DNA of 64,000 nt from positions 59,780,040-59,844,039 of the forward strand of contig OY743176.1 in NCBI GenBank assembly GCA_963555705.1, written 5' to 3'. Source of the DNA: Ligustrum vulgare. Lineage: Eukaryota; Streptophyta; Magnoliopsida; Lamiales; Oleaceae. Numbering within the stretch: position 1 is the first letter of the stretch; every line of letters begins with the position of its first letter. The position numbers were made by a program, and so were the translations under genes. Positions 310 to 62,294 of this stretch are shown one piece after another. Under the pieces are notes generated by a model. It saw only the letters and a program-made list of their open reading frames with translations. It was not told the DNA's origin and did no database searches.

Positions 310-1167
310 CACTACAAGAAATTTACTTTCCGCATACAAAATAAATTTGTAGGGAAATGTTCTTATTCGTGGGTAAAAGTCTTCTCGGACAAAAATAATT
401 TGTAGGGAGGTTTGTGTGGCAAACATCGAGGGGATAGACATAAGCCGACAAATTTGGTACCTTTGTCTGTAGAGGTATGTGCCTACGAACCCTTTCGCTA
501 CAAAAATCATTTGTCGTCTAAGATCTTTCCCAACGAAATGATTTGTATGCTAATGTTTATTTTACCTACGAAATATGTTTCGTTGACTGAAGTTCGAGCC
601 TACAAATCTTTTAGAGACAAATATTATTTGTCGTCTAATTTCTATCCCTACACAATTTTTTGTATTCTAATGTTAGATTGGACTACGAAATATGTTTGTA
701 GATATAGAGTAAAATGATGTTGTAGGCTAAATCATACTTTTCCCCACAAATAATTGTTTGTATGGAAAGCATTTTGTAAGTTAATTTCTTGTCTACACAC
801 TTCTGTTTGCGGGGAAAGCTTATTTATAGGATAAATTTTTTATATGTTTCAACAATTATAGTATTTGTAGGGAAACTTGAATCAATTTTTTATTTTTTTT
901 TAATTTAAATGTAGTATTAAATATTGTTTGTTTATGCAAAATTATAACAATATGCAAAAATTAAATTAAATTAAAATTTCTAAAATAAACCAATATAGTA
1001 CTAACTGCAAATATTGTATCAAACTCCAAATAAAAACTCATTGTCACTGAATGTGATTGTAATAAACTTAAAAAGAGTTTAGCAAACATACTCTTTCGAC
1101 ATCTACACAATAAAAATAACATAAATATCTATCCTCATAACTTAATTAAATATGCTACTCATCCTCA

Positions 1168-1284
1168 TCAAAGTTCAGCATCGGGATTGTCAACGGATAT
1201 CTCCTCCAAATGAGTGTCTTTCGAAAGCTGTTGTTCCTCATCCTTTTGCAAGAGATATTCATCAACTTTGACAAGTATCTCATC
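1168..1284 (-). other. exon-like open segment inside the CACTA element
   Basis: On the minus strand a pyrimidine-rich stretch ending TTGCAG is followed by an open frame that begins DEILVKVDEYLLQKDEEQQ and ends with TGA at 1170-1168. It is acidic and hydrophilic, like the last exon of a transposase-associated or captured gene. I cannot assign a family and it may be coincidental. Confidence 0.25.
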
Positions 1285-1287
1285 CTG

Positions 1288-2583
1288 CAAGATATGATAG
1301 ATAAAAAAAATAGATATATATAAATAGACATCCAGAAGATATATAACACTAATCAAGAAAAAAATCAAAGCACAAACGCAAAACTGAATATTTCTTACAT
1401 ATTGAGTCTTAGCTATATTATACGTCCAAAACTCATTCTTCCCTACAAATCATTATATACTCTAAAAACACTGGGCTCAATTTCCTAATTCTAAAATTTG
1501 TTATCTAAAAATAAAATTCCTAAACTCAAATTGTGTACCAACCAGATTTTCAAGTATTTCAAGACTAATCACTTTGATCAGCATCAAGCATTAAAAGTAA
1601 TACTAATGGTCATGGTAAGCAAAATCAATTTTTGACAAACATAATACATCATACATAGCTACATCTATATCTGAACATTTCTAAATGCAGTTTACATAAA
1701 TTAGACTTTAGTGCTCTGTATCTGTGCAAAGAGCAATTTTTAAGATGTGCAGGAGTACTTTCTCCCAATTGCTCAAACATAAATATTACATAAGTTTCTA
1801 GTCAATTGTGGAGAACCAAACCAAACACTCTCCTAAAAGGGGCATACGGCAAACTCAGGGAAGATTTAAATTTTAGATTATGTACAAGAAGATCCATGTG
1901 TTCTATAAAACTTTGGAAAATAAAAGAGAGAAGGGCATGGCATCACCCAACACATCTAAATTGAAAAATAAAAGAAGTGCTAGTAGGCTCAAGAAATCTA
2001 AGGAAAGAGAGAAGGGCATGGCATTACCCACCAGACTGAAGCGAGCATTCTCAAAATTTGACCGAGCATGATGAATCTCCTGAGGAAATTCTAGAAAATA
2101 TCAAAATATGTATCATTGGGTACTACTTCACATACACAAAATGTGCTTTACATAATTATGTTACCTTAAGGATGTGCTGGGATAATTAACTTATCAACCA
2201 TAACTATCTTACTAACTTTTGGCTTACACACTCATCAAGTCACTTGGACAAAATTTCATAATTATCAAACTTGATCAAAGGATAAACCTGTCGAATAGTA
2301 GGGCAAGCATGAGGAGATAACAAAACCACCACAAGACTACCACAAGACTTTACAGAGAACATCAAAAGTAATATGAAGGTAAAGATTTTAACTTTTGTGC
2401 AGATCGAGAGAAGTATACTCACAGAGCAATATTGAAGAATATACGAAGCTCGTGTTTTGGAATAAAGTAGCCAGGGGAATTTTCTTTCCTTTGTAGTCGT
2501 AAAATAAAGAAAAATAATCAGCTGTAGTAGAGGCAGCAAGTAATACAATTGATAAAAACCCAACAATGGGATCATATTGACAT
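1288..2583. other. CACTA interior without recognisable gene
   Basis: AT-rich sequence inside the CACTA element. A near-duplicated phrase, GAGAAGGGCATGGCAT, occurs at about 1928 and 2010. No convincing coding frame, RNA gene or further element end was seen. Confidence 0.4.
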
Positions 2584-3600
2584 TTGCAAATGACAATGCC
2601 CTTCCCATTTAATGTAGTTCAAGATTTAGGCTGCAAAATTGAAGTGAGGATTGAACACAAATCAATTTACAAAGAAGAAGCTAATTATTCAAATGTAACC
2701 TATGTATCAAAAACAAACAGAGGCAATAATCAAGACCAATTTCTGCTTTCAAATTACCATGTCCAAACCATCAGCCACAATTCACCAAAATCATAGTCGA
2801 AGCCACAGCCACAATCAACACTATTGACCAAACCGCCAAATTTCACAACCACAAGAAGTATTCACTGCCTTCTTCACCAGAAAACTCTCTCACAGCAACT
2901 CCAACACCACAGCCGAACCATGAACCAGTACAACATCAAAACTCCATAGCTGAAACCGACCACCAACGCCAGTACTGTTCGAACCTCAATCTCAGCCATT
3001 GTCTTGACCAACACAGTCGCCACTACCAAAAGCACACGCACCACCACCAAAACTGCCCAACTTGAAAGTCACCTCCCATCGTCGACCAAAACTGCACCAC
3101 AGCTCTACCGTCATCACCAAACGGACATCACCACTGCCACAGCCACTGTCGACCGCACAACCCGTCATAACCACTGCCCAACCCAAATCAACATTCCAAA
3201 TCGAAAACCAAAAAAAAAAAAAAAATAACCAAGAAATAAATTAATCCCAATACCTAACCTCGATCTTCGACCACTTCGACCGGATTAATCACCGGAAAAC
3301 TTCCAAACCCAAACCTCTCAGTTTCGGTTTTGACACCCAAGAGCAAGCCCACTTCATATCTTTCCATACCCACACCACTTCGACCTCCACCTCGCGAAGG
3401 TGGCACCGCCGCCGACCAGCGACTTGAAACTGGAGAAGGCGCCGTCCATCGCCCGACCTCCGCCTCTCTCTCTCCTTCCTCCTCTGTTTCGGGCCGAGTG
3501 AGAGAGAGAGAGAATTGTATTGTTTTAAAAATGAATTTTTTACAAAAATTGCCCTTTTTAAAAATCGACACATAAAATTCAAAAAAATTCACAAAATTAC
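2584..3600. other. C/A-rich, then CT-rich non-coding segment of the CACTA element
   Basis: The plus strand is rich in CCACCA/CATCACC words, then in a GA/CT microsatellite (about 3470-3515). It gives low-complexity Thr/Pro/His frames on one strand and Arg/Glu-rich frames on the other. The layout (C-rich stretch, TCGACC...CCGG motif, then GAGAGAGA) resembles the middle of the LTRs at 4521, 10514 and 16505, so it may be a diverged relative of that LTR. No real gene is supported. Confidence 0.35.
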
Positions 3601-4520
3601 TACCGCGTTTTTATATGCGTCGATTTTCTTGAAAAGAGATTTACATTTGTTATTTTTTTGGGTAAATTTGTACTAGTGTTCCTCTTCGATAGTAAGAAAT
3701 ATTCTAGGGCAAAGTCGAGTGGAGGGATGGAAACGTGATAAGTTTTTACTTTTAGAAGGAAACTTTTAATTTATTTTTTTCCTAAAATTTAGATTAAATT
3801 TTTATTCTTTTTTTAATTATTTTTTCCTATTAAAATAAATTTTGTAGGGAAATTAAAAAAAAAACGCGGATTTTTCTTTAATTATTAGCCTAAAATAAGT
3901 CATTTTTTGTCGGCAAAAAATATATCTTATGCCACGATTTTTTCGCATGAAAAATATACATGTTTGTAGTCACAAAGTCCTCTAATCTTGAAAATTTTGG
4001 AGTTAAATGTTAGCCCTACGAATCCTTGTTTTGCGGGAAAAAGTGATTCCCCAACGAAAACCTCTATGACCTGATAGGAAAGGTCAATCCCTACTTCGAA
4101 GCGACAATCTTATTAGTATAAATAGCAATAAATCAATGAATAAATTTTAAAAATATTTAAGTAAAATAATTCTTCAAAATATCAAATTTGTAGGGTAAAA
4201 TAAACTCACGTTACGAATTAAAAATTGTATTCTAAAATTTTGGAGGCAAAATTATATTCCAACGAAAATTATTTTTGTGAAAAAAAATTAACTCCGCCTA
4301 CAAATCTCATTTTATAGGCAGAATTTCGTAGGCTAAAGTATGCATATTTTTGGAGCCAATGTTTTACACATACAAAATCTTATTTTGTGGGAAAAAATAA
4401 TCTTTACCTACAAATCTCATTTTTTAGGCGGAATTTCGTAGGCTAAGTTACATATTTTTGGAGCCAATTTTTTCCACATACAAAATCTTATTTTGCGGGG
4501 AAAAACAATCTTTACCTACA
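3601..4520. repeat. CACTA subterminal repeat region (left side)
   Basis: AT-rich DNA with several copies, in both orientations, of a short block whose core is CCTACAAATCTCATTTT...AGGC (about 4295, 4400 and 4510) and of TTTTTGGAGCCAAT. The last copy is cut at 4520 by the nested retrotransposon and resumes at 20162, which shows the retrotransposon entered an existing subterminal repeat. Confidence 0.7.
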
Positions 4521-7500
4521 TATAGCGACCCAGAATTTTTACGCAATTTTATAATTATTTTAATATTTAGAAAATTGTGTCGCTACTATTTCACTCATTG
4601 TTTTGAAATTAACGCCGCGACGGATTCGTCTAGCCAAGTCAAGAAATATCGAATTTGTTCGATTTTAAATTAAAATTCGAATTTCTAAAATTTTGTTATT
4701 TTAATTATTTATTCAAAGTATTATTTTCAAAATCATTTTGAATTCCAAATTTATTAAAATATCTCAATTTTCCTTATTAAAATTATTTCAAGTCCAAATA
4801 CGTAATTCAATTTTTATCTCAATTTTCAAATTTATTTTCAGTCCAAAATATATCAGTTTTAAATACAATTTCAAATCAAAGTTAGTCAAATTTTTAGTTA
4901 AATTAATTCTATTTAACTAAACCAAATTTTCCCCACATGTTTTCTTCTTTACACCAAAACATCATCATTTTATAAAGAATCTTACACAATTGTCCATTTC
5001 ATATTCCACCTAATTCTACACTATCCTATTCTATAATACCTAATCAATACATATATTTCTCTTATCCCCCATCACAACTCACGTTGCCCACATTTTGTTT
5101 CCTTCTTAATTATTCTTTCTATCTCATTGTGTACAATCAACAAGCATCTCCACACATGGACAATTGGAACACCTCAAAGCATCATCATTATCATCACCAA
5201 TTCCACTCAACGATTCCCTCCACTTTCCACCCCATCTCATACCTAACTCTCCACTATACTTTCTTCAATTTAAGTCACTTTCTCCAGCTTTCCTCCATCA
5301 ACATCATCACACACACGTATTATTTTCAATACCATCACTGCCATTGTTCCATTTTCACAATTCAGCCACCACTAGAATTCACATCTCGATCCATTTCAGC
5401 CTCCTCCCTACACCACTGCAGTATACCTCCGCCCCAAAGCAGCCACTGATCAACCATAGCCCAATTATCCACAACCAAGAACCACCCCCCAACCAGCCTG
5501 ATCAAGAACAGCCCTCACCATCACTCTGTTAAACACTCAATTCACCAAAGCTGTCGATCCACCATCATCGTATTGGCATCAACCTGCAGCTCCATCACCC
5601 AAGAAATCTGTATCATCACCTTCACTGCCATTCTTGCTCACTGCACAAAACCAAGAACCTCATGAATGCCAAATTTAATACCCAAATCACCACCACCCCG
5701 GCCAAGATCAAACACCCTGCATCATCTTCATCAATCAACCACAATGCCATTTCTTTCAACATCCACCACTGCCTCATTCAAATTTAATTCACCACCTCCT
5801 CAATCCAGCCACCACCGTACCTAGCTACAATCATCAGACGACATCACCACCTCCGACCACCACTACTCAACTCTAAATCACCAAATGAACACCAACCTTC
5901 AAGATCAAACATCCGTTCATCATCATCATCGCCAACAACCCAATCATCGCAACCAATACATCAAAACCACCCTGCAACCAGTTTTCGTTGCAGCTCCAAA
6001 CCGCCACGCAACCAACTCAGCCCATCCAACTCACCATCTTCATCACCAACGTAATCACTGTAAAACCACCAAGTCATCATCACCCAACCACCGAATCATC
6101 ACCACCCAAAACCATCATCCTCAGTCACAAATCAAACCCAAAATCAAAACTGAAAACCCAGAATAAGTTATCCCAAATACTTACCTACCTCGACCGCCGG
6201 TAAACTCGCCGGAAAATCGTGAAATCAAGCCACGGTCGCACACGGTTTCGCACTCAAAACTCGCACCCAATCCCTCAAATTTGAAACACTCCTTGGCCGC
6301 CTCTTGCCGCCACCATGCGGCAACGTTCCGCCGGCCAATCGCCGGTTGTAGCGCCGGAAATGGGTGAGAGGCCTCGCGTGCTCTCATCGCCTCTGAACCT
6401 TCCAATTTTGAGAGAGTTTTGTTGTGAGAGAGAGTAATAAAATCGTTTTTAATAATTGTTTTGATTTTCAGATTTTGCAAACCAGTCCCCAGCCTTCTAA
6501 TATGATTTTATTCCAGTACCAAGTTTTGCTGATTATTTATTTCAGTCCTTCAGCTTCTAAAACTGTTTATTTCAGTCCTTACTGATTTAAATCATTTGAT
6601 TATAAATCCCAAGTTTCAAAAGTACTCATTTTAATCCCTCAACTTTCAAAGTATCCATTTGAGTCTTTCAACTATCAAAAGTATCCATTTAAGTCCCTCA
6701 ACTTTCAAAAGTATTCAATTTAGTCCCTCAACTTTCAAAACATCAATTTTAGTCCTCAAATTATAATTTATCATTTTGAACTATATATTCGATAGACTAA
6801 AGTGACTTATTGGCTAAGACGAAGCGTACGGAGAATTTAAAGAAATTGAAGTCATTCCCGCTCAACTTTGCACTCGTCGAATTTGAGGTAGACTCGCACT
6901 TATTAATTGATTTAAATTATGATTTCATATAAATGTCATGTGACTTGTGAAAGTCAATTTTCAAGAAAATTAAGTATGTTTTATGAAAGGTAAATATACC
7001 TTATGTTTTTATGAAAAGTAAGTATACCCTATGTTTTTACGATAATGTTTTATATGTTTTGGATCATTGCTATGCACATAAGAATTCTTACCACCTAAGT
7101 TCGGTAAAATTCTTGTGTCTCCATAAGTTTATGAGGATTTACCACCTAAGTTCGGTAAAATTCCTGTCTTTCCATATGTTTATGAGGATTTACCACCTAA
7201 GTTCGGTAAAATTCCTGTCGCATATGTTTATGAGGATTTCGATCCTATCTTATGTTATAATGGAAATGATCCCTATGAATTTCATGAATTATGTTTTGGT
7301 ATACTTACTGTTATTATGATCTTACTGTTATTATGATTTTACTACATAAGAATTCTTGCCACCTAAGTTCGGTAAAATTCTTATATTTATGAGGATTTCG
7401 ATCTTATCCTATGTTATTATGATCTTACTGTTATTATGGTTTTACTGCATAAGAATTCTTGCCACCTAAGTTCGGTAAAGTTCTTGTGTCTATTTATGTT

Positions 7501-8172
7501 TATGAGGATTTCAATCCTATCTTATGTTATGCTTTCAAAAGAAATTATGCTTGGCATAATTAAAATGTTTTTTTATAAGTATATGGTTTTCAAAGAGCTG
7601 TTTTCAAAGAGCTATTTTCAAAGAGCCTATGATTTATAAAATATGTCCCGTGCTGTAATGCACAATATGAGTTTTATCAAGAGCAGTTTTATAAAGAAGC
7701 TCTATCAATGCCGTTTTATAAAGAGCCGGGATTTATGTGTTTAATCATCTTATAAATTAAATTAATTTGCGATGAGTCTACTGAGTATTTCCCCCATGAA
7801 ATACTCACCCTACTTTTTAACAGTTTTGCAGATTTCGGAGACGGTGGCGAGCGATGAATGATGGTGGCAATAATCGTTAAACGGTTGAAAGTTTGACGTT
7901 AATGATTTCCGTATTTTTTTCCAAACAATCGAATAATTTAGAGAAGTTCATTTATTTGAGAAATTATGACATTGTCAATTTCTTTACAAAATTAATGGTT
8001 CGATTTACTATTTCAAATGGTTTCATAAATGTTTTCAATTTTATCGGCCATTACAGTTTATTTAATGTTGCCAAAAATGAATTTCAACTATTTCTTCCGC
8101 AAAAATATTATTCGAAAAATTTAGACAGAAAATGACGTAGTGAATCGGGTATACGGAACTCGGGGCGCTACA
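4521..8172 (+). repeat. LTR 1 of the LARD-like element
   Basis: It starts TATAGCGACCC and ends GGGGCGCTACA; the ends are inverted repeats apart from the second base (TA instead of the usual TG). It contains an AT-rich part, a C-rich part (about 5050-6170), a set of TCCCTCAACTTTCAAAAGTA-type repeats (about 6600-6760) and five GTTCGGTAAA repeats. The one difference noticed from LTR 2 is A instead of G at 7259. His/Pro-rich open frames here are low complexity and not credible genes. Confidence 0.92.
7091..7480 (+). repeat. five short direct repeats inside LTR 1
   Basis: The core CCACCTAAGTTCGGTAAA starts at 7091, 7142, 7193, 7359 and 7462, each followed by a TTTATGAGGATTT block. The first three are spaced exactly 51 bp apart. 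The same set recurs in LTR 2 (+5993) and LTR 3 (+11984). The spacing suggests slippage duplication; a role as enhancer repeats is possible but not shown. Confidence 0.85.
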
Positions 8173-8175
8173 AGT

Positions 8176-8187
8176 TGGTATCAGAGC
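8176..8187 (+). promoter_or_regulatory. primer-binding site, initiator-Met tRNA (copy 1)
   Basis: TGGTATCAGAGC lies three bases after LTR 1. It is the standard plant site complementary to the 3' end of initiator tRNA-Met, used to start minus-strand DNA synthesis. Confidence 0.93.
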
Positions 8188-10496
8188 TAGTCTGCGTTTC
8201 TGTAGACTGGTAAAATTTTCAAAAAGAATTTTCAAGAAATATTTTCATTATAAGATTTTTATTGATGAAGATTGCCACTGCCATCATTCGTTCCACCAAC
8301 TCCGAGGTAAAGAAGTTTATGATGTTTAAAGTTATTTCAGTATTTCGAATACTCATTTTACTGATTTATGAGAAAGAATGAAGAGTATTTCGTATACTTA
8401 TGATTTATGAGAAATAAGAATGTATTTCTTCGAAAATAATGATGTTGTTATGCTTTGTCATAACTTATATGCTTTAATGTATGATTATAAAAAAAAAAAA
8501 ATTTAGAAAGAAAACGAGTGTTGAGCATAATGGGAATAATATGATTTTATTGAGAATTAAGTAATGGATATTATGTTGAGTAAGTGAATTATTTCCTCTA
8601 TTTTGAAGAGAAATTTATTATGAAGTTTGGCCTTGTGAATAAATTTTGGGAACATGATTTATGGTATATATTTATAAGTATGAGTTATCTTTTGAGCCAT
8701 TAAGGTATCGAAGGAAGTGATATTGTGATATTGAAAAATATAATTTGAAATTGTTATGTTAAGGAATTATGAATTGAATTATGGGATATTTTTGATGATA
8801 TTGAAGTGTTGGAATCATTTTCAATATTTTTAGATCGTTGTGATTAAATGTGGAGTTATATGTTATTGTTAGTTATGAAGTATACTTATGGTTTGGGATA
8901 AGTTCAAATTACAAGGGAGACTCTGTCCAGAATTTTATCATTTGGAATTAAGAGCATAGTATGGTATGCAATCACTAAGAGAATTGAGTTTAGAATTGCA
9001 AGTTCATAAGCAAGATTGAGTAAATGATAAGTTATATTTTGAAAGACGAGTGAAGACAAGTATAAGGGCATTATTGGGAAGAATCTTAATTTTTCTTGGG
9101 AATGGATTTATCACTTGAAAGGAATGATCACTTGTATTGGAGAGTATTATAAGGATATGAATTTTGAGGAAAATAGGAATAAGATTTTACAGTGATGATC
9201 TTATTTTGATGGTTTATTGCATTATGGTAAAATATTATCTACGATTGAGAATTTTCATTTTTAGTCATAATATATGGGTTTATTTAAAGATTTAGTGATA
9301 CAGTTTCGATTAATTATTATTGGTTGTACTTTTGAAGTGAGTAAATATTTTGGCTACAATAATGGAAAATCTGAGATGATCAGTTGTGTGATTTTTAATT
9401 ATGGGATTGTATCTTTGGGTTAAGCAAATTTGATGAGGAATCCTATATGATGTACAGAAGTCTTATTTAATGGTGATAAGATTAATCAGAGTATTGTTCA
9501 TAAAGTGTGATATGAATTGAAGTTTGGGAGAATAGAAAATTTTAATTTTAAATTTCAGATTTGGGAAATTAGTGAAGTTTCTTAAGTTTGAGAATAACAT
9601 ATTTGATCCTTGTGATGCTGTTTTAAGTTAGTATCTTAGCTCTCAGCTAGAATGAGTATTTGATACCGAGTACTTGATGTATGATTTAAAGTATGGAATA
9701 GAAAAAAAATGAAAAGTGGGAACAAGAGTTAATGCGCTGTTATTTTTCTCGACAAAAGAAAATTTGATGATAAGATTGGAGATATGGAATATTTTATTGG
9801 ATTTTGGTACTGATATTTTTGGTATAATAATCAAGGTATAGTGAGATGATACGGGAATACGTGAAAGAGAAATAAGGACCGTATTGAATCAGAATTTATA
9901 AGTATGTATAAGTGAAAGAAATACTTTGCATGAAATGTGGTGACATTTAAGTAAAGAATCTTAGTTATTTGGAAGATATTTGTTTACTGAATTTTGGGTT
10001 ACAAATATTGGAAAGATAAGTTGATGATATTATGTTGATATGTTTGGGTATATTACGTAGAGAGAATATTCAGGTAATTCTTTGATTATTATTTTGGGAA
10101 TATTCGATGATAAGAAGAAAGGAAATTTTTTTATGATATGATATATCAGTAAAGATTTGTTGAAATTTTAGAGATATATACGAATATTTGAGGTCACATG
10201 ATACGATGATAAGTGACAAGTTACATGAATACTACAAGATATGATGAAATATCACATACGATTGGGAAAATTTCATTTTGATTCAGAAGAATTTTTGAGT
10301 AGACACATATGTCTATAGAAAAAGTCCATGTTCTTGAGAAAACAAAGTGATGCATTTAGTCAGAGTCCAGTTGGTTAAATATGGTTGGGTTAAATATGGT
10401 AGCAATGATGCTACATAAGAGAAGAAGAAGAAGAGATTCTGATTAAGTATTCAGAAATCATAAGATCAAGTAAGTTTAATTTCGAGGACGAAATTA

Positions 10497-10513
10497 TTTT
10501 AAGGGGGTAAGAT
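10497..10513 (+). promoter_or_regulatory. polypurine tract (copy 1)
   Basis: TTTTAAGGGGGTAAGAT directly before LTR 2, preceded by the Ty3/gypsy-like word TTCGAGGACGAAATT (10481-10495). It would prime plus-strand synthesis. Confidence 0.85.
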
Positions 10514-13500
10514 TATAGCGACCCAGAATTTTTACGCAATTTTATAATTATTTTAATATTTAGAAAATTGTGTCGCTACTATTTCACTCATTGTTTTGAA
10601 ATTAACGCCGCGACGGATTCGTCTAGCCAAGTCAAGAAATATCGAATTTGTTCGATTTTAAATTAAAATTCGAATTTCTAAAATTTTGTTATTTTAATTA
10701 TTTATTCAAAGTATTATTTTCAAAATCATTTTGAATTCCAAATTTATTAAAATATCTCAATTTTCCTTATTAAAATTATTTCAAGTCCAAATACGTAATT
10801 CAATTTTTATCTCAATTTTCAAATTTATTTTCAGTCCAAAATATATCAGTTTTAAATACAATTTCAAATCAAAGTTAGTCAAATTTTTAGTTAAATTAAT
10901 TCTATTTAACTAAACCAAATTTTCCCCACATGTTTTCTTCTTTACACCAAAACATCATCATTTTATAAAGAATCTTACACAATTGTCCATTTCATATTCC
11001 ACCTAATTCTACACTATCCTATTCTATAATACCTAATCAATACATATATTTCTCTTATCCCCCATCACAACTCACGTTGCCCACATTTTGTTTCCTTCTT
11101 AATTATTCTTTCTATCTCATTGTGTACAATCAACAAGCATCTCCACACATGGACAATTGGAACACCTCAAAGCATCATCATTATCATCACCAATTCCACT
11201 CAACGATTCCCTCCACTTTCCACCCCATCTCATACCTAACTCTCCACTATACTTTCTTCAATTTAAGTCACTTTCTCCAGCTTTCCTCCATCAACATCAT
11301 CACACACACGTATTATTTTCAATACCATCACTGCCATTGTTCCATTTTCACAATTCAGCCACCACTAGAATTCACATCTCGATCCATTTCAGCCTCCTCC
11401 CTACACCACTGCAGTATACCTCCGCCCCAAAGCAGCCACTGATCAACCATAGCCCAATTATCCACAACCAAGAACCACCCCCCAACCAGCCTGATCAAGA
11501 ACAGCCCTCACCATCACTCTGTTAAACACTCAATTCACCAAAGCTGTCGATCCACCATCATCGTATTGGCATCAACCTGCAGCTCCATCACCCAAGAAAT
11601 CTGTATCATCACCTTCACTGCCATTCTTGCTCACTGCACAAAACCAAGAACCTCATGAATGCCAAATTTAATACCCAAATCACCACCACCCCGGCCAAGA
11701 TCAAACACCCTGCATCATCTTCATCAATCAACCACAATGCCATTTCTTTCAACATCCACCACTGCCTCATTCAAATTTAATTCACCACCTCCTCAATCCA
11801 GCCACCACCGTACCTAGCTACAATCATCAGACGACATCACCACCTCCGACCACCACTACTCAACTCTAAATCACCAAATGAACACCAACCTTCAAGATCA
11901 AACATCCGTTCATCATCATCATCGCCAACAACCCAATCATCGCAACCAATACATCAAAACCACCCTGCAACCAGTTTTCGTTGCAGCTCCAAACCGCCAC
12001 GCAACCAACTCAGCCCATCCAACTCACCATCTTCATCACCAACGTAATCACTGTAAAACCACCAAGTCATCATCACCCAACCACCGAATCATCACCACCC
12101 AAAACCATCATCCTCAGTCACAAATCAAACCCAAAATCAAAACTGAAAACCCAGAATAAGTTATCCCAAATACTTACCTACCTCGACCGCCGGTAAACTC
12201 GCCGGAAAATCGTGAAATCAAGCCACGGTCGCACACGGTTTCGCACTCAAAACTCGCACCCAATCCCTCAAATTTGAAACACTCCTTGGCCGCCTCTTGC
12301 CGCCACCATGCGGCAACGTTCCGCCGGCCAATCGCCGGTTGTAGCGCCGGAAATGGGTGAGAGGCCTCGCGTGCTCTCATCGCCTCTGAACCTTCCAATT
12401 TTGAGAGAGTTTTGTTGTGAGAGAGAGTAATAAAATCGTTTTTAATAATTGTTTTGATTTTCAGATTTTGCAAACCAGTCCCCAGCCTTCTAATATGATT
12501 TTATTCCAGTACCAAGTTTTGCTGATTATTTATTTCAGTCCTTCAGCTTCTAAAACTGTTTATTTCAGTCCTTACTGATTTAAATCATTTGATTATAAAT
12601 CCCAAGTTTCAAAAGTACTCATTTTAATCCCTCAACTTTCAAAGTATCCATTTGAGTCTTTCAACTATCAAAAGTATCCATTTAAGTCCCTCAACTTTCA
12701 AAAGTATTCAATTTAGTCCCTCAACTTTCAAAACATCAATTTTAGTCCTCAAATTATAATTTATCATTTTGAACTATATATTCGATAGACTAAAGTGACT
12801 TATTGGCTAAGACGAAGCGTACGGAGAATTTAAAGAAATTGAAGTCATTCCCGCTCAACTTTGCACTCGTCGAATTTGAGGTAGACTCGCACTTATTAAT
12901 TGATTTAAATTATGATTTCATATAAATGTCATGTGACTTGTGAAAGTCAATTTTCAAGAAAATTAAGTATGTTTTATGAAAGGTAAATATACCTTATGTT
13001 TTTATGAAAAGTAAGTATACCCTATGTTTTTACGATAATGTTTTATATGTTTTGGATCATTGCTATGCACATAAGAATTCTTACCACCTAAGTTCGGTAA
13101 AATTCTTGTGTCTCCATAAGTTTATGAGGATTTACCACCTAAGTTCGGTAAAATTCCTGTCTTTCCATATGTTTATGAGGATTTACCACCTAAGTTCGGT
13201 AAAATTCCTGTCGCATATGTTTATGAGGATTTCGATCCTATCTTATGTTATGATGGAAATGATCCCTATGAATTTCATGAATTATGTTTTGGTATACTTA
13301 CTGTTATTATGATCTTACTGTTATTATGATTTTACTACATAAGAATTCTTGCCACCTAAGTTCGGTAAAATTCTTATATTTATGAGGATTTCGATCTTAT
13401 CCTATGTTATTATGATCTTACTGTTATTATGGTTTTACTGCATAAGAATTCTTGCCACCTAAGTTCGGTAAAGTTCTTGTGTCTATTTATGTTTATGAGG

Positions 13501-14165
13501 ATTTCAATCCTATCTTATGTTATGCTTTCAAAAGAAATTATGCTTGGCATAATTAAAATGTTTTTTTATAAGTATATGGTTTTCAAAGAGCTGTTTTCAA
13601 AGAGCTATTTTCAAAGAGCCTATGATTTATAAAATATGTCCCGTGCTGTAATGCACAATATGAGTTTTATCAAGAGCAGTTTTATAAAGAAGCTCTATCA
13701 ATGCCGTTTTATAAAGAGCCGGGATTTATGTGTTTAATCATCTTATAAATTAAATTAATTTGCGATGAGTCTACTGAGTATTTCCCCCATGAAATACTCA
13801 CCCTACTTTTTAACAGTTTTGCAGATTTCGGAGACGGTGGCGAGCGATGAATGATGGTGGCAATAATCGTTAAACGGTTGAAAGTTTGACGTTAATGATT
13901 TCCGTATTTTTTTCCAAACAATCGAATAATTTAGAGAAGTTCATTTATTTGAGAAATTATGACATTGTCAATTTCTTTACAAAATTAATGGTTCGATTTA
14001 CTATTTCAAATGGTTTCATAAATGTTTTCAATTTTATCGGCCATTACAGTTTATTTAATGTTGCCAAAAATGAATTTCAACTATTTCTTCCGCAAAAATA
14101 TTATTCGAAAAATTTAGACAGAAAATGACGTAGTGAATCGGGTATACGGAACTCGGGGCGCTACA
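10514..14165 (+). repeat. LTR 2 (central LTR) of the LARD-like element
   Basis: Same 3652-bp sequence as LTR 1. It is shared by the two internal domains, so it serves as 3' LTR for the first and 5' LTR for the second. No base private to this copy was noticed, so it looks closest to the parental sequence. Confidence 0.92.
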
Positions 14166-14168
14166 AGT

Positions 14169-14180
14169 TGGTATCAGAGC
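14169..14180 (+). promoter_or_regulatory. primer-binding site, initiator-Met tRNA (copy 2)
   Basis: TGGTATCAGAGC three bases after LTR 2, identical to copy 1. Confidence 0.93.
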
Positions 14181-16487
14181 TAGTCTGCGTTTCTGTAGAC
14201 TGGTAAAATTTTCAAAAAGAATTTTCAAGAAATATTTTCATTATAAGATTTTTATTGATGAAGATTGCCACTGCCATCATTCGTTCCACCAACTCCGAGG
14301 TAAAGAAGTTTATGATGTTTAAAGTTATTTCAGTATTTCGAATACTCATTTTACTGATTTATGAGAAAGAATGAAGAGTATTTCGTATACTTATGATTTA
14401 TGAGAAATAAGAATGTATTTCTTCGAAAATAATGATGTTGTTATGCTTTGTCATAACTTATATGCTTTAATGTATGATTATAAAAAAAAAAATTTAGAAA
14501 GAAAACGAGTGTTGAGCATAATGGGAATAATATGATTTTATTGAGAATTAAGTAATGGATATTATGTTGAGTAAGTGAATTATTTCCTCTATTTTGAAGA
14601 GAAATTTATTATGAAGTTTGGCCTTGTGAATAAATTTTGGGAACATGATTTATGGTATATATTTATAAGTATGAGTTATCTTTTGAGCCATTAAGGTATC
14701 GAAGGAAGTGATATTGTGATATTGAAAAATATAATTTGAAATTGTTATGTTAAGGAATTATGAATTGAATTATGGGATATTTTTGATGATATTGAAGTGT
14801 TGGAATCATTTTCAATATTTTTAGATCGTTGTGATTAAATGTGGAGTTATATGTTATTGTTAGTTATGAAGTATACTTATGGTTTGGGATAAGTTCAAAT
14901 TACAAGGGAGACTCTGTCCAGAATTTTATCATTTGGAATTAAGAGCATAGTATGGTATGCAATCACTAAGAGAATTGAGTTTAGAATTGCAAGTTCATAA
15001 GCAAGATTGAGTAAATGATAAGTTATATTTTGAAAGACGAGTGAAGACAAGTATAAGGGCATTATTGGGAAGAATCTTAATTTTTCTTGGGAATGGATTT
15101 ATCACTTGAAAGGAATGATCACTTGTATTGGAGAGTATTATAAGGATATGAATTTTGAGGAAAATAGGAATAAGATTTTACAGTGATGATCTTATTTTGA
15201 TGGTTTATTGCATTATGGTAAAATATTATCTACGATTGAGAATTTTCATTTTTAGTCATAATATATGGGTTTATTTAAAGATTTAGTGATACAGTTTCGA
15301 TTAATTATTATTGGTTGTACTTTTGAAGTGAGTAAATATTTTGGCTACAATAATGGAAAATCTGAGATGATCAGTTGTGTGATTTTTAATTATGGGATTG
15401 TATCTTTGGGTTAAGCAAATTTGATGAGGAATCCTATATGATGTACAGAAGTCTTATTTAATGGTGATAAGATTAATCAGAGTATTGTTCATAAAGTGTG
15501 ATATGAATTGAAGTTTGGGAGAATAGAAAATTTTAATTTTAAATTTCAGATTTGGGAAATTAGTGAAGTTTCTTAAGTTTGAGAATAACATATTTGATCC
15601 TTGTGATGCTGTTTTAAGTTAGTATCTTAGCTCTCAGCTAGAATGAGTATTTGATACCGAGTACTTGATGTATGATTTAAAGTATGGAATAGAAAAAAAA
15701 TGAAAAGTGGGAACAAGAGTTAATGCGCTGTTATTTTTCTCGACAAAAGAAAATTTGATGATAAGATTGGAGATATGGAATATTTTATTGGATTTTGGTA
15801 CTGATATTTTTGGTATAATAATCAAGGTATAGTGAGATGATACGGGAATACGTGAAAGAGAAATAAGGACCGTATTGAATCAGAATTTATAAGTATGTAT
15901 AAGTGAAAGAAATACTTTGCATGAAATGTGGTGACATTTAAGTAAAGAATCTTAGTTATTTGGAAGATATTTGTTTACTGAATTTTGGGTTACAAATATT
16001 GGAAAGATAAGTTGATGATATTATGTTGATATGTTTGGGTATATTACGTAGAGAGAATATTCAGGTAATTCTTTGATTATTATTTTGGGAATATTCGATG
16101 ATAAGAAGAAAGGAAATTTTTTTATGATATGATATATCAGTAAAGATTTGTTGAAATTTTAGAGATATATACGAATATTTGAGGTCACATGATACGATGA
16201 TAAGTGACAAGTTACATGAATACTACAAGATATGATGAAATATCACATACGATTGGGAAAATTTCATTTTGATTCAGAAGAATTTTTGAGTAGACACATA
16301 TGTCTATAGAAAAAGTCCATGTTCTTGAGAAAACAAAGTGATGCATTTAGTCAGAGTCCAGTTGGTTAAATATGGTTGGGTTAAATATGGTAGCAATGAT
16401 GCTACATAAGAGAAGAAGAAGAAGAGATTCTGATTAAGTATTCAGAAATCATAAGATCAAGTAAGTTTAATTTCGAGGACGAAATTA

Positions 16488-16504
16488 TTTTAAGGGGGTA
16501 AGAT
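16488..16504 (+). promoter_or_regulatory. polypurine tract (copy 2)
   Basis: TTTTAAGGGGGTAAGAT directly before LTR 3, identical to copy 1. Confidence 0.85.
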
Positions 16505-19500
16505 TATAGCGACCCAGAATTTTTACGCAATTTTATAATTATTTTAATATTTAGAAAATTGTGTCGCTACTATTTCACTCATTGTTTTGAAATTAACGCC
16601 GCGACGGATTCGTCTAGCCAAGTCAAGAAATATCGAATTTGTTCGATTTTAAATTAAAATTCGAATTTCTAAAATTTTGTTATTTTAATTATTTATTCAA
16701 AGTATTATTTTCAAAATCATTTTGAATTCCAAATTTATTAAAATATCTCAATTTTCCTTATTAAAATTATTTCAAGTCCAAATACGTAATTCAATTTTTA
16801 TCTCAATTTTCAAATTTATTTTCAGTCCAAAATATATCAGTTTTAAATACAATTTCAAATCAAAGTTAGTCAAATTTTTAGTTAAATTAATTCTATTTAA
16901 CTAAACCAAATTTTCCCCACATGTTTTCTTCTTTACACCAAAACATCATCATTTTATAAAGAATCTTACACAATTGTCCATTTCATATTCCACCTAATTC
17001 TACACTATCCTATTCTATAATACCTAATCAATACATATATTTCTCTTATCCCCCATCACAACTCACGTTGCCCACATTTTGTTTCCTTCTTAATTATTCT
17101 TTCTATCTCATTGTGTACAATCAACAAGCATCTCCACACATGGACAATTGGAACACCTCAAAGCATCATCATTATCATCACCAATTCCACTCAACGATTC
17201 CCTCCACTTTCCACCCCATCTCATACCTAACTCTCCACTATACTTTCTTCAATTTAAGTCACTTTCTCCAGCTTTCCTCCATCAACATCATCACACACAC
17301 GTATTATTTTCAATACCATCACTGCCATTGTTCCATTTTCACAATTCAGCCACCACTAGAATTCACATCTCGATCCATTTCAGCCTCCTCCCTACACCAC
17401 TGCAGTATACCTCCGCCCCAAAGCAGCCACTGATCAACCATAGCCCAATTATCCACAACCAAGAACCACCCCCCAACCAGCCTGATCAAGAACAGCCCTC
17501 ACCATCACTCTGTTAAACACTCAATTCACCAAAGCTGTCGATCCACCATCATCGTATTGGCATCAACCTGCAGCTCCATCACCCAAGAAATCTGTATCAT
17601 CACCTTCACTGCCATTCTTGCTCACTGCACAAAACCAAGAACCTCATGAATGCCAAATTTAATACCCAAATCACCACCACCCCGGCCAAGATCAAACACC
17701 CTGCATCATCTTCATCAATCAACCACAATGCCATTTCTTTCAACATCCACCACTGCCTCATTCAAATTTAATTCACCACCTCCTCAATCCAGCCACCACC
17801 GTACCTAGCTACAATCATCAGACGACATCACCACCTCCGACCACCACTACTCAACTCTAAATCACCAAATGAACACCAACCTTCAAGATCAAACATCCGT
17901 TCATCATCATCATCGCCAACAACCCAATCATCGCAACCAATACATCAAAACCACCCTGCAACCAGTTTTCGTTGCAGCTCCAAACCGCCACGCAACCAAC
18001 TCAGCCCATCCAACTCACCATCTTCATCACCAACGTAATCACTGTAAAACCACCAAGTCATCATCACCCAACCACCGAATCATCACCACCCAAAACCATC
18101 ATCCTCAGTCACAAATCAAACCCAAAATCAAAACTGAAAACCCAGAATAAGTTATCCCAAATACTTACCTACCTCCACCGCCGGTAAACTCGCCGGAAAA
18201 TCGTGAAATCAAGCCACGGTCGCACACGGTTTCGCACTCAAAACTCGCACCCAATCCCTCAAATTTGAAACACTCCTTGGCCGCCTCTTGCCGCCACCAT
18301 GCGGCAACGTTCCGCCGGCCAATCGCCGGTTGTAGCGCCGGAAATGGGTGAGAGGCCTCGCGTGCTCTCATCGCCTCTGAACCTTCCAATTTTGAGAGAG
18401 TTTTGTTGTGAGAGAGAGTAATAAAATCGTTTTTAATAATTGTTTTGATTTTCAGATTTTGCAAACCAGTCCCCAGCCTTCTAATATGATTTTATTCCAG
18501 TACCAAGTTTTGCTGATTATTTATTTCAGTCCTTCAGCTTCTAAAACTGTTTATTTCAGTCCTTACTGATTTAAATCATTTGATTATAAATCCCAAGTTT
18601 CAAAAGTACTCATTTTAATCCCTCAACTTTCAAAGTATCCATTTGAGTCTTTCAACTATCAAAAGTATCCATTTAAGTCCCTCAACTTTCAAAAGTATTC
18701 AATTTAGTCCCTCAACTTTCAAAACATCAATTTTAGTCCTCAAATTATAATTTATCATTTTGAACTATATATTCGATAGACTAAAGTGACTTATTGGCTA
18801 AGACGAAGCGTACGGAGAATTTAAAGAAATTGAAGTCATTCCCGCTCAACTTTGCACTCGTCGAATTTGAGGTAGACTCGCACTTATTAATTGATTTAAA
18901 TTATGATTTCATATAAATGTCATGTGACTTGTGAAAGTCAATTTTCAAGAAAATTAAGTATGTTTTATGAAAGGTAAATATACCTTATGTTTTTATGAAA
19001 AGTAAGTATACCCTATGTTTTTACGATAATGTTTTATATGTTTTGGATCATTGCTATGCACATAAGAATTCTTACCACCTAAGTTCGGTAAAATTCTTGT
19101 GTCTCCATAAGTTTATGAGGATTTACCACCTAAGTTCGGTAAAATTCCTGTCTTTCCATATGTTTATGAGGATTTACCACCTAAGTTCGGTAAAATTCCT
19201 GTCGCATATGTTTATGAGGATTTCGATCCTATCTTATGTTATGATGGAAATGATCCCTATGAATTTCATGAATTATGTTTTGGTATACTTACTGTTATTA
19301 TGATCTTACTGTTATTATGATTTTACTACATAAGAATTCTTGCCACCTAAGTTCGGTAAAATTCTTATATTTATGAGGATTTCGATCTTATCCTATGTTA
19401 TTATGATCTTACTGTTATTATGGTTTTACTGCATAAGAATTCTTGCCACCTAAGTTCGGTAAAGTTCTTGTGTCTATTTATGTTTATGAGGATTTCAATC

Positions 19501-20156
19501 CTATCTTATGTTATGCTTTCAAAAGAAATTATGCTTGGCATAATTAAAATGTTTTTTTATAAGTATATGGTTTTCAAAGAGCTGTTTTCAAAGAGCTATT
19601 TTCAAAGAGCCTATGATTTATAAAATATGTCCCGTGCTGTAATGCACAATATGAGTTTTATCAAGAGCAGTTTTATAAAGAAGCTCTATCAATGTCGTTT
19701 TATAAAGAGCCGGGATTTATGTGTTTAATCATCTTATAAATTAAATTAATTTGCGATGAGTCTACTGAGTATTTCCCCCATGAAATACTCACCCTACTTT
19801 TTAACAGTTTTGCAGATTTCGGAGACGGTGGCGAGCGATGAATGATGGTGGCAATAATCGTTAAACGGTTGAAAGTTTGACGTTAATGATTTCCGTATTT
19901 TTTTCCAAACAATCGAATAATTTAGAGAAGTTCATTTATTTGAGAAATTATGACATTGTCAATTTCTTTACAAAATTAATGGTTCGATTTACTATTTCAA
20001 ATGGTTTCATAAATGTTTTCAATTTTATCGGCCATTACAGTTTATTTAATGTTGCCAAAAATGAATTTCAACTATTTCTTCCGCAAAAATATTATTCGAA
20101 AAATTTAGACAGAAAATGACGTAGTGAATCGGGTATACGAAACTCGGGGCGCTACA
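16505..20156 (+). repeat. LTR 3 of the LARD-like element
   Basis: 3652 bp. Three bases differ from the other two copies: C for G at 18176, T for C at 19695, A for G at 20140. It is followed by the CTACA duplication and by the resumed CACTA subterminal repeat. Confidence 0.92.
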
Positions 20157-20218
20157 CTACAAATCTTATTTTGTATGCGCATTATTTGTAGGAAAAGCAA
20201 AATTTTCTTGTAGTGTAT

Positions 20219-20627
20219 GGGTGCTCCATTCAAAAAATGTCAATTTCAATGAAGAGGTCTTTTTCGTTTAATCCGAACACTTAGTATCTAAAATTGAGTT
20301 TTTTAGATTGGTGCAGCTGAATTAGTGAATATTGCCTCACCAGGTTTAGCATGGAATTTTCTAATTCAAAATTGTATACAGAAATAATGAAATGTGAATA
20401 TGATTTTCTCATGTTTCATGTCCCAAAATATAATATAATATAATATAAAATAAAATGAAATACAATGATTTTATTGGAAGGAATTGAATAACAGATGTCG
20501 AATTGAGGTTGTTCTATATGATAGTACTACATGCTATTTTTTTCCTAATCAAGTTTCCGTACAATCCATGTATTAAAATCATGTACATGCTAAGACTCTT
20601 ATAAAATATATAAAAATTAACGAAAGC
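20219..20627. other. host DNA between the CACTA element and the gypsy element
   Basis: Apart from the possible exon tail at 20219-20284, this is AT-rich DNA with an imperfect TATAA/TAAAA simple repeat at about 20428-20460. No gene is recognised. Confidence 0.5.
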
Positions 20628-20632
20628 AGTTG

Positions 20633-21175
20633 TGACGAGACGGAAGTACGGAATTCAAGCGAAATCTTTAAAAGAAATATGAAATTTGGAATTCACCAAG
20701 CAACTCGGAATCCATCAAGCGAATTGAGAAAAAATTTCAAGAATTTTATTAATAATCTGAATGAATAAAAATAATGAATTAACCTACTATTTATATGGCC
20801 ATAAAATAAAGAAACATATTTTAAATCAAATAGGAAAAACATAAAACCTATTATAAATTAACTAAATAAAATAAAGAAACATATTCTAAATCATCTAGGA
20901 AAACATAAACCTATTTTAGATCAAATAAAATAAAATCAAGATAAACTAAATGATAGAAATAGTACTAAAATACTAAAAGACTATTTTCAATGTATGAACA
21001 ATCTCGAATGCTCAAAATCTATCATATATCAAAGCAAAGCAGTGAGTTGCACTCGTCTCGTCGAGCTACCCAAAATAGACATATTATGGGTCCGAAACGA
21101 AGGTTGACCGCCAAATCTGTAAATTCCGATCTAGTCCTTTACGATCTAATTTTGCATCAATTTTGTCCTACATCA
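20633..21175 (-). repeat. 3' LTR of the gag-only gypsy element
   Basis: 543 bp. On the minus strand it starts TGATGTAGGACAAAAT and ends CCGTCTCGTCA. It is clearly homologous to 22748-23282 with scattered substitutions and small indels, so this insertion is older than the LARD-like element. Confidence 0.9.
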
Positions 21176-21246
21176 GACCCTTCCACCTCCAAATAACTCG
21201 ACCCCGAGTTATAATTTTAACTCGAAAATTTTCAAGCTATTAGTCA

Positions 21247-22716
21247 CTAGCGATGTCTTGCTCCTTTGAATTTAAATTTCTTAAATTCGAGGATTAGCGC
21301 TCCAATAAATTGGCCAACTAAAATATGTGGTTTCATGAATAAATCATCATCACCATTTGGTTGTTCCTTCAAGACATAATAGCTAACATGTTTAACATGT
21401 AAGCATGCCATCAAAATTGTTTTCTCGATTTTTAACTTTTCAATTTTATCATTCACAGCACAATCTTCTACTTCTTCAAAGACGTATTCTTTGATTTCAT
21501 CCCTATAAATAAAATTCACAATTTTCTCTTGAACATTCTTCCTACCACTAGCGATCATATCTCCTGTCTCATTACAAGTAACACCCTTTTTTTCTTCATC
21601 TACCTCTACCTCCACCAGATTAATTTGCTTACATTCCGGGAATACATTGGACTGATGCCCTTGCTTGTTGCAACGATAACAAATTACTATTGTTGGTTTG
21701 GCATATGGATTCTCCTTATGAGGTTGATTTCATCCGTGATTCCTGGTATTTATTTTAGAATTTTGAGCTGCCTGATTATTTGCAATGGAGGGTTTTGTAG
21801 TATTTCCTATTTCAAGTGTATTAGATGATTATAGAACAGTTTGAGGGACTCGCCGAAAATTGGTTGTTTTCTTCTCGTTCTCCATTGCCCTAGCTCGTAA
21901 GTCCATATTAATTGCGTCATATCAACATAATCTGCAACCCAATTTTCTCTTGGATGGAAACCTTTAGCCCACTAGTAAAACGAGCAATCATCTGATTTTT
22001 ATACTCCTGAAGGTCATTACGTTCAACCAACCTTTGGAATTCAAAGACATAATCATGCACACAACGATTGCTCTGCACACAATTCAAGTACATACGATAG
22101 AGAATTTTTTTGTAATCCAAAGGTAAGAACCGTCCCTGTAATAAATGCTTCATTCTTCTCCAGTTGCGAATTTTATTCTTCCCTTGTTTATGACAGGTGG
22201 CCTGTAATTGATACCACCATACTGCTGTAGAACCCTTCAAGCGAAATGCCACAATCTTCACTAATTTTTTTATCGGAAATCTTCATCATATCAGAAAATC
22301 TCTCAACTTCCCCTAGTCAATCCTAGCCAATCGAAGAAATCTTCAACTCTTAAGTTGCCAGCAAAGTAGGGAATATCTGCCTTAACACGATAGTCTTTCC
22401 GATTATTGTTGTTTTTCGTGGAGGAGCAATATCCTCCTCCGAATCTTCATCGCTAGTATCGCCATACTTTACATCCCTAGCAGCCTTACGGTTGTGCCCT
22501 CCTTCAGGATGGCCAAGGGCAACTCCCTCAACTCCATCTCGGTTGGCAAGGGCACGGGCGTTAACAACGTGTGCTTTGGGGTTGGGTTGACGACCCAACA
22601 GTTAGCATGCCCTCCATCATTTGCCGCTGCCTGACAATTGCTGCCCATAGATCTACATCACCTTCCCTACGATCAGCATCGCGAGGGTTCACTCTTTCGG
22701 CTTCATTATTGGCCAT
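21247..22716 (-). pseudogene. degenerate Ty3/gypsy gag polyprotein
   Basis: The minus-strand frame starts MANNEAERVNPRDADRREG at 22716. It continues through a linker ending near 22350. Then comes a segment (22261-21917) with the plant retrotransposon gag signature (Retrotrans_gag, PF03732): LKGSTAVWWYQLQ, a basic region, RFLPLDYKK and VERNDLQEY. A nucleocapsid zinc-knuckle remnant CYRCNKQGH follows at about 21690-21640; its final Cys is displaced by extra residues. A last acidic segment ends at 21247. Frameshifts and stops break it into pieces. Gag would package element RNA in cytoplasmic particles; this copy cannot do so. Confidence 0.85.
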
Positions 22717-22733
22717 TGAACAAGGCAAACCTA

Positions 22734-22745
22734 GCTCTGATACCA
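22734..22745 (-). promoter_or_regulatory. primer-binding site of the gypsy element
   Basis: Minus-strand TGGTATCAGAGC, two bases downstream of the 5' LTR end, complementary to initiator tRNA-Met. Confidence 0.9.
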
Positions 22746-22747
22746 AT

Positions 22748-23282
22748 TGACACAAGACGGAAGCAAGGAATTCAAGTGAAATCCTTAAAAGAAATATGAA
22801 ACTCGGAATCCAACAAGCGAATTGAGAAGAAATCTCAAGAATTTTTTTAATAATCTGTATGAATAAAAATAATGAATTAACACACTATTTATATGACCAT
22901 AAAACATAGAAACCTATTCTAAATCAAATAAGAAAAGCATAAAACCTATTATAAATTAACTAAATAAAACAAAGAAACATATTTTAAACCATCTAGGAAA
23001 ACATAAAACCTATTTTAGATAAAAAAAAAATTAAAAAGAAATTTGAAGATAAACTAAATGACAGAAATAGCACTAAAATACTAAAAGACTATTTTCGCTG
23101 TCTGAACGATCTCGAATGCCAAAAATCCATCAATGTCATAGTAGAGCAGTGAATTGCACTCGTCTCATCGAACTAACTAAAATAGACATAATATGGGCCC
23201 GAAACGAAGGTTAGATGCCAAATCTGTAAATTACGGTCTAGACCTTTACGATCTAATTTTGCATCGATTTTGTCCTACACCA
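22748..23282 (-). repeat. 5' LTR of the gag-only gypsy element
   Basis: 535 bp. On the minus strand it starts TGGTGTAGGACAAAAT and ends CCGTCTTGTGTCA, followed by the primer-binding site. Confidence 0.9.
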
Positions 23283-41241: not shown

Positions 41242-41639
41242 GTTACTCGCGAGGCCGTGTTGCTACATTGAACCCCTTGCCATTGACAACAGTCAGAAGT
41301 AGTACCATTAATATCATCCCAGGAAGGCAGCAATTTTTCGGGAGGTAAGTTTATGTTTGCTTTGAGGTCGTTTAGAGCAATCCTCTCTTCCTCCAAACAG
41401 CCTAAACAATACCAGCTGCTGCGTTCATTTAGCAGCAGCATCACTAACCATACCCAAAACTTATTAATCCCCATCAATCTTTCTTGATTTTCAACTCGAA
41501 AATTAATTCCGACTTATTGTGCTTTGGTGGAGTCTCCTTGTTAGTGGCTTCTCTTTTTATACAAGGACAAGGAAGTTTATGGTCAGAATTAATTTGCCCT
41601 TTCGTTATTGTCCAAAATGATAACCTGTTTACACTGTGA

Positions 41640-47861: not shown

Positions 47862-47925
47862 CGATCTTTCTTAATTATCAACTCGAAAATTATTCCGACT
47901 TATTGTGCTTTGGTGGAGTCTCCCC

Positions 47926-62018: not shown

Positions 62019-62294
62019 TGTAACAACCCCGGTCCCACTTAACGAGCTGTCTCGGCAGTTAGATGATGGCGTACTGTTCCGACTGTACCAACACGAGTCT
62101 TTTCAGCATCCTTTGTCCTCACTTGCATGCTCCACAAGAAAACTTCTCAGGAGACCACCCATCCCAGAATTACTCCAAGCCAAGCACGCTTAACTATGGA
62201 GTTTCTAACGATGGAATTCCGGAAAAGAAGATGCACTTGATGATATGAGTAGTACATATCATTTATTTTAAGCTTTCTTGGTCCAGGTATTACA
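62019..62294 (-). repeat. Cassandra LTR a
   Basis: 276 bp; the 5S-like core is at about 62143-62203, with the A-box-like TTAAGCGTGCTTGG (minus strand) intact and the C-box region slightly changed (GGATGGGTG becomes GGATGGGTG with downstream GTCTCCTGAGAAG). Confidence 0.88.

What the first reader, a model, noticed from the sequence alone, without database searches (positions are those of the whole stretch)
4521..20156. Non-coding retrotransposon with three identical-length LTRs and two internal domains
LTR-internal-LTR-internal-LTR with a single outer TSD (CTACA). The three LTRs are all 3652 bp. By eye I found one private base in LTR 1 (7259), none in LTR 2 and three in LTR 3 (18176, 19695, 20140), plus a 2-base poly-A difference between internals. 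The near identity suggests very recent insertion and a later unequal exchange between LTRs. The element codes for nothing, so a partner must have been active recently.
Basis: partly seen in the sequence, partly recalled or inferred. Interest (0 to 1): 0.8.

Follow-up and report, generated by a model that had tools for sequence, protein, structure and literature searches.

The report
Tandem non-coding plant LTR retrotransposon
A young mobile element that seems to make no protein sits in a plant chromosome as two copies sharing a middle repeat, an arrangement already known to be common in plants.

Summary
Three 3652-bp LTRs (4521-8172, 10514-14165, 16505-20156) and two internals (2341 and 2339 bp) form LTR-INT-LTR-INT-LTR, with four private bases (1, 0, 3); the internals differ only by two A's. 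The TSD CTACA is perfect, and the joined flanks rebuild a neighbouring repeat of the host sequence. The element has a tRNA-iMet-type primer site, a purine tract and unusual TA...CA ends, shared by all three LTRs and so older than the insertion. None of 40 pieces scanned reached a Pfam cut-off. Tandems sharing an inner LTR within one TSD are published: 266 candidates in a rice pangenome, and complexes attributed to template switching. I favour one insertion followed by unequal LTR-LTR exchange; insertion of a dimeric cDNA, or an assembly error, is not excluded, because the base pattern does not discriminate. Single copies and the partner could not be sought: the genome search did not complete 14 times. 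The finding is largely ordinary. The main side-find is an antisense leader-like module that the LTR and its CACTA host seem to share.

The parts
310..20215 (.). Host element: CACTA-type DNA transposon (TIR CACTACAAGAAA, TSD TAT at 307-309 and 20216-20218) into which the LTR element is nested, leaving 54 bp of the host (20162-20215) after the second TSD copy
4516..4520 (.). Left copy of target-site duplication CTACA
20157..20161 (.). Right copy of target-site duplication CTACA
4521..8172 (+). LTR 1 (3652 bp), TA...CA ends, private A at 7259
8173..10513 (+). Internal domain 1 (2341 bp; 7% C, 21% G), A-run of 13 at 8489
10514..14165 (+). LTR 2 (shared middle LTR, no private base)
14166..16504 (+). 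Internal domain 2 (2339 bp), A-run of 11 at 14482
16505..20156 (+). LTR 3 (3652 bp), private bases at 18176, 19695, 20140
8176..8187 (+). Primer-binding site TGGTATCAGAGC (initiator tRNA-Met type), 3 nt after LTR 1; second copy 14169-14180
   Evidence: tRNA assignment recalled
10501..10507 (+). Purine tract AAGGGGG just before LTR 2; second copy 16492-16498 before LTR 3
6141..6480 (-). Antisense leader-like module in the LTR (CT repeats, CCGG-rich, splice-donor-like AGGTAGGTA), aligning with CACTA 3201-3560 (-); repeated at 12134-12473 and 18125-18464
3201..3560 (-). Counterpart of that module inside the CACTA host
6888..7831 (+). Stretch of the LTR with splice-like ends (GAG/GT...TTTTGCAG/AT), 8-nt complement GTAGACTC (6888-6895) / GAGTCTAC (7774-7781) and hairpin GAGTATTTC/GAAATACTC; the ends are shared with a diverged LTR at 49 kb; function untested

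Best explanation
A non-autonomous LTR retrotransposon that works like a LARD, probably related to a Ty3/gypsy Tekay-like lineage (not filed as a member), inserted once into the 3' subterminal repeats of a CACTA transposon and duplicated CTACA. Its RNA must have been packaged, primed on the tRNA-iMet site, copied and integrated by proteins of an autonomous partner (inferred). Soon afterwards an unequal exchange between the right LTR of one copy and the left LTR of the same element on the sister chromatid or homologue left LTR-INT-LTR-INT-LTR inside the one TSD, with a solo LTR as the lost reciprocal product (inferred). Shown here: the anatomy, the single outer TSD, the near identity, the absence of detectable coding, and the nesting. 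Inferred: the partner and the exchange.
For: Structure and private bases. Empty site and TSD. No inner TSD. Primer site and purine tract. No Pfam match above cut-off in 40 of 40 pieces scanned: 23 of 23 sense-strand internal pieces of at least 25 aa, 6 of 31 antisense internal pieces of that size, 10 of 10 LTR1 ORFs of at least 80 aa, and 1 ORF across the left border. Long identical LTRs (3.65 kb) give ample homology for exchange. In rice a single locus is found as tandem, single and solo-LTR haplotypes, and Tekay elements are enriched among rice tandems.
Against: The private-base order in the middle LTR (like LTR1, LTR3, LTR1, LTR1) is not the pattern of one crossover unless at least one mutation came later, and it is just as expected if the array was inserted whole. 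Sabot and Schulman read an outer TSD plus near-identical outer LTRs as a sign of template switching. No reciprocal solo LTR or single-element allele could be looked for. The Tekay link lacks a detectable pol domain.
Confidence: 0.5

Rival explanations
1. The array was integrated whole: a dimeric cDNA was made by inter-template switching between two co-packaged RNAs, or from a read-through transcript of a one-LTR circle or tandem parent, and inserted by integrase with one TSD.
For: A single TSD with near-identical outer LTRs is the diagnostic used by Sabot and Schulman; read-through of one-LTR circles is proposed by Morales-Diaz et al.. All four LTR differences are private to the outer LTRs and none lies in the internals, as expected if everything was identical at insertion (P of none in the middle 0.20, of none in the internals 0.24).
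Against: It needs a rarer replication error and a 15.6-kb cDNA (judgement, not tested). There is no site where LTR1 and LTR3 agree against LTR2 (0 of 4), which would have been positive evidence.
Confidence: 0.27
2. Assembly artefact: a single LTR-INT-LTR element was traversed twice, so the middle LTR is a mixture of the two true LTRs and the poly-A difference is homopolymer noise.
For: The middle LTR has no private base and takes an LTR1 or LTR3 base at each of the four sites. The only internal difference is in a homopolymer. No reads are available.
Against: One such array in rice was confirmed by 4 spanning long reads, and candidates are common in plant assemblies; nothing in this window itself argues against an artefact.
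Confidence: 0.15
3. Two independent neighbouring insertions recombined through their adjacent LTRs.
For: This is the classical origin of most complex elements according to Sabot and Schulman.
Against: It predicts different outer target sites. Here both outer 5-mers are CTACA and the joined flanks restore a continuous repeat of the host transposon. The three LTRs differ at only 4 of 3652 sites.
Confidence: 0.03

Closest known systems
Tandem LTR retrotransposons sharing an inner LTR (TLI1/TLI2 and 266 rice pangenome candidates; Morales-Diaz et al. 2025, PMC11899658; abstract, background, results and discussion read)
   Same: LTR-INT-LTR-INT-LTR within one short TSD; similar LTRs (85-89% in TLI1, 99% in TLI2); nested in a DNA transposon (a MULE) in the TLI2 case
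   Different: All 28 curated tandems of the rice reference carry coding domains; this one shows none, and it has TA...CA ends
Template-switch complexes (Angela, Squiq, Opie; Sabot and Schulman 2007, PMC1950507; abstract and results section read)
   Same: Three LTRs, two cores, flanking TSD, near-identical outer LTRs
   Different: Nothing here is specific to template switching; the core here shows no coding domain
LARD elements such as Sukkula (described in PMC7215508, passages read)
   Same: A core without protein products, dependence on a partner assumed
   Different: Conservation across copies was not tested; here the element sits in tandem
Cassandra TRIM tandem arrays (PMC7215508, passages read)
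   Same: Non-coding element in arrays sharing LTRs
   Different: Small 5S-bearing element; such an array also seems to lie in this window at about 62.0-63.9 kb
TARE1 (tomato; PMC3701649, abstract and section list read)
   Same: LTRs starting TA; the authors propose a G-to-A change spread by amplification
   Different: Copia (Ale lineage), 194-bp LTRs

Membership tests
Tandem LTR retrotransposon with shared inner LTR | Alternating LTRs and internals, starting and ending with an LTR | tested here: met
Tandem LTR retrotransposon with shared inner LTR | One TSD flanking the whole array, none inside | tested here: met
Tandem LTR retrotransposon with shared inner LTR | Array confirmed by spanning long reads | not testable with these tools
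   no reads held
LARD (large retrotransposon derivative) | Long LTRs with primer site and purine tract | tested here: met
LARD (large retrotransposon derivative) | Internal domain without coding capacity | tested here: met
   longest stop-to-stop internal piece 55 aa sense and 81 aa antisense; no Pfam match above cut-off in 23 of 23 sense pieces and 6 of 31 antisense pieces of at least 25 aa; the other 25 antisense pieces were not scanned
LARD (large retrotransposon derivative) | Multi-copy family with a conserved internal domain | not testable with these tools
   genome search unanswered (14 tries, first, last)
Ty3/gypsy, Tekay lineage | RT and integrase (chromodomain) phylogeny | tested here: inconclusive
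   no pol domain detected; a 3'-terminal peptide resembles the recalled end of Tekay-type pol by eye only
Canonical LTR retrotransposon ends (general, not lineage-defining) | TG...CA LTR ends | tested here: not met
   TA...CA in all three LTRs; TA starts are published for TARE1, a copia element
TRIM | Short LTRs and almost no internal domain | tested here: not met
   3652-bp LTRs, 2.3-kb internal
CACTA transposon (host of the insertion) | CACTA terminal inverted repeats and 3-bp TSD | tested here: met
   no transposase was sought

The most novel reading that the evidence does not exclude
The LTR of this class I element and its class II (CACTA) host carry one homologous, about 340-bp antisense start-of-transcript module (CT tract, CCGG-rich leader, splice-donor-like AGGT(T)AGGTA). 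That would mean two unrelated transposon classes in this plant captured, or exchanged, the same promoter-leader, and each of the three LTRs would then be a bidirectional promoter.
Probability: 0.25. Interest if true: 0.5.

Novelty: new member of a known kind. Interest (0 to 1): 0.22.

Why it matters
As a tandem element it adds one clean, young, non-coding example to a recently catalogued class. Because it is so young, with four private bases, single-copy or solo-LTR alleles in relatives could help decide between local exchange and insertion of a dimer, a question left open in print. The TA start in all three LTRs shows that an element with a non-canonical U3 end integrated with a perfect 5-bp TSD.

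Tried and rejected
Genome-wide search for single copies and an autonomous partner: the same request to the genome search did not complete 14 times, so nothing is known about copy number or partner. Viral-contig scans for exact LTR-end plus primer-site patterns and for the octamer-hairpin pattern found 0. Rfam on the window found nothing at gathering scores. Search of the 108-aa antisense LTR ORF against the protein collection: 3 candidates, none with E at or below 0.001.

Considered and set aside: nested insertion (no inner TSDs, identical parts); two independent insertions (shared TSD, continuous empty site); internal-domain base bias as a cDNA-editing scar (the U3 side of the LTR, also copied in every cycle, is biased the opposite way: 34% C and 7% G over 4771-6270).

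Against the side-finds: blastn of the LTR against the rest of the window at E 1e-3 did NOT report the CACTA module, only two matches near 49 kb; the module similarity shows only in a gapped local alignment (228 identities, 79 mismatches and 64 gap columns in 371 columns), in two sequences, without any third example. The long-range 8-bp pairing in the LTR is only suggestive: shuffled 5' blocks reach 8 bp in 291 of 5000 for LTR1, 480 of 5000 for the 49-kb LTR, and both in 29 of 5000. Its predicted pairing is 0.92-1.0 in LTR1 but 0.54 in the 49-kb LTR and absent from that one's minimum-energy fold.

Papers: PMC11899658 (abstract, background, results, discussion); PMC1950507 (abstract and results section); PMC7215508, PMC5659011 and PMC7264820 (passages); PMC3701649 (abstract and section list). 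Others were seen only in search listings.

Full report
OBSERVATION. The three LTRs are at 4521-8172, 10514-14165 and 16505-20156, each 3652 bp, with four differing positions in all: LTR1 differs at 7259, LTR3 at 18176, 19695 and 20140, LTR2 nowhere. Three of the four are C-to-T or G-to-A changes if the majority base is ancestral; the fourth is G-to-C. The internals at 8173-10513 and 14166-16504 are identical except for an A-run of 13 against 11.

TARGET SITE. CTACA flanks the array on both sides and no duplication lies at the inner junctions. The joined flanks align, with no gap at the junction, to a neighbouring repeat unit of the host sequence: score 70, against 50 for the left and 20 for the right flank alone. 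The last five bases of the LTR also read CTACA. That looks like a coincidence, and the LTR1/primer-site junction fixes the LTR end.

HOST ELEMENT. The flanks look like one CACTA-type element from 310 to 20215, with termini CACTACAAGAAA on both ends and TSD TAT. The retrotransposon landed in its 3' subterminal repeats, 54 bp of which remain to the right. The intact TAT duplication suggests the CACTA was there first.

THE ELEMENT. After each of the first two LTRs come three bases and TGGTATCAGAGC, recalled as the complement of plant initiator tRNA-Met. Before LTR 2 and LTR 3 is TTAAGGGGGTAAGAT. The LTRs begin TA and end CA. Since all three share TA, it predates insertion, so a non-canonical end was integrated with a proper TSD. 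TA-starting LTRs are published for TARE1 in tomato, a copia element. The internal is strongly biased (7% C, 21% G), while the U3 side of the LTR is C-rich and G-poor (34% C, 7% G over 4771-6270).

CODING. The longest stop-to-stop pieces of the internal are 55 aa (sense) and 81 aa (antisense). Forty pieces were scanned against Pfam: 23 of 23 sense internal pieces of at least 25 aa, 6 of 31 antisense ones, 10 of 10 LTR1 ORFs of at least 80 aa, and one ORF across the left border. None reached a curated cut-off; six weak matches (E 0.013 to 1.8) to unrelated families look like chance. The lowest sense-frame stop count is 57, against a mean of 70 for the lowest frame in 500 single-base shuffles (2.5-97.5% range 59-79), so a faint coding ancestry is possible. 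The 3' end resembles the end of Tekay-type pol by eye; this is recalled, not tested. So 'codes for nothing' holds as far as tested, and 'Ty3/gypsy' is likely but not proven.

AGE. LTR1 and LTR3 differ at 4 of 3652 sites. With recalled plant rates of 7e-9 to 1.3e-8 per site per year this is about 42-78 thousand years. Zero substitutions between the internals gives a 95% upper bound of about 49-92 thousand years for their divergence.

HOW THE TANDEM AROSE. Two independent insertions are excluded in practice by the shared TSD. For unequal exchange, the middle LTR should match LTR3 before and LTR1 after one breakpoint; the four sites read LTR1, LTR3, LTR1, LTR1, so at least one mutation is later. 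For insertion as a dimer, all differences should be later private changes; none in the middle has probability 0.20 and none in the internals 0.24. An assembly error would also give a middle LTR without private bases. The data do not decide. I prefer exchange because the LTRs are long and near-identical, and because rice shows tandem, single and solo-LTR alleles of one locus, although the authors of that work call both mechanisms possible.

WHAT IS KNOWN. Tandems sharing an inner LTR are widespread in plants: 266 candidates in a rice pangenome, with Tekay enriched; 11 in Arabidopsis and in almond; 130 in cotton. Complexes with one TSD and near-identical outer LTRs were described in Triticeae, rice and maize in 2007. 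[quoted passage not shown] What is slightly unusual here is that the tandem shows no coding and has long TA-starting LTRs. The searches (4 of 4 papers listed; 12 of 28 listed) showed no title on tandem LARDs; most of the listed papers were not read.

SOURCE. A 750-aa LRR receptor-like ORF at 43392-45644 (-) is 71% identical to its best listed relatives in Abeliophyllum and Forsythia and 66% or less to those in olive, among the best 120 of 1703 hits. The plant is therefore probably in Oleaceae (inference).

SIDE-FINDS. The LTR antisense stretch 6141-6480 and the CACTA antisense stretch 3201-3560 align over nearly their whole length: score 43, against a maximum of 21 in 1000 dinucleotide shuffles and 28 in 500 local-composition shuffles; the best of 119 other window stretches scored 21. 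In a finer scan the best listed stretch outside the two elements scored 29 against the CACTA query, near a T-run at 34.5 kb. Identity is 228 of 371 columns with 64 gap columns, and blastn at E 1e-3 did not report it, so homology is likely rather than sure. Plant LTR elements with antisense promoters are on record (passages). A diverged LTR relative lies at 48806 to about 49700 (-). It keeps the LTR's GTAGACTC/GAGTCTAC complement, the 9-bp hairpin and a TTTTGCAG acceptor-like site, while the region between the octamers has changed length (260 against 886 nt). This could be an intron or an RNA fold in the LTR leader; the statistics are only suggestive.

VERDICT.

Noticed in passing
window 62018-63872 (-): A second tandem LTR array, probably Cassandra-type TRIM: LTR-like units with primer sites at 62856 and 62441, spacings 415, 425, 280 and 453, 62-89% alike; one unit matches 5S rRNA over the full model but weakly (20.2 bits, E 0.59, below gathering).
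   Followed up: partly
window 6141-6480 (-) and 3201-3560 (-): The LTR and the CACTA host seem to share an antisense leader-like module of about 340 bp; not reported by blastn.
   Followed up: partly
window 48806-49700 (-): Diverged relative of the LTR ending GGGGCGTTACA, with conserved hairpin, complementary octamers and an acceptor-like site.
   Followed up: partly
window 20622-23282 (-): LTR element with 83-87% alike LTR pieces, about 2.1-kb repeat spacing, a gag domain (PF03732) and an iMet-type primer site at 22745, apparently with no room for pol.
   Followed up: no
window 33287-33664 (-): Copia-type gag fragment (PF14223).
   Followed up: no
window 41079-47870 (-): LRR receptor-like protein genes or fragments; for the one searched (43392-45644) the best listed relatives are in Oleaceae.
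   Followed up: partly
window 24467-25902: Tandem repeats of about 142 bp with a GCGACCAACC motif.
   Followed up: no
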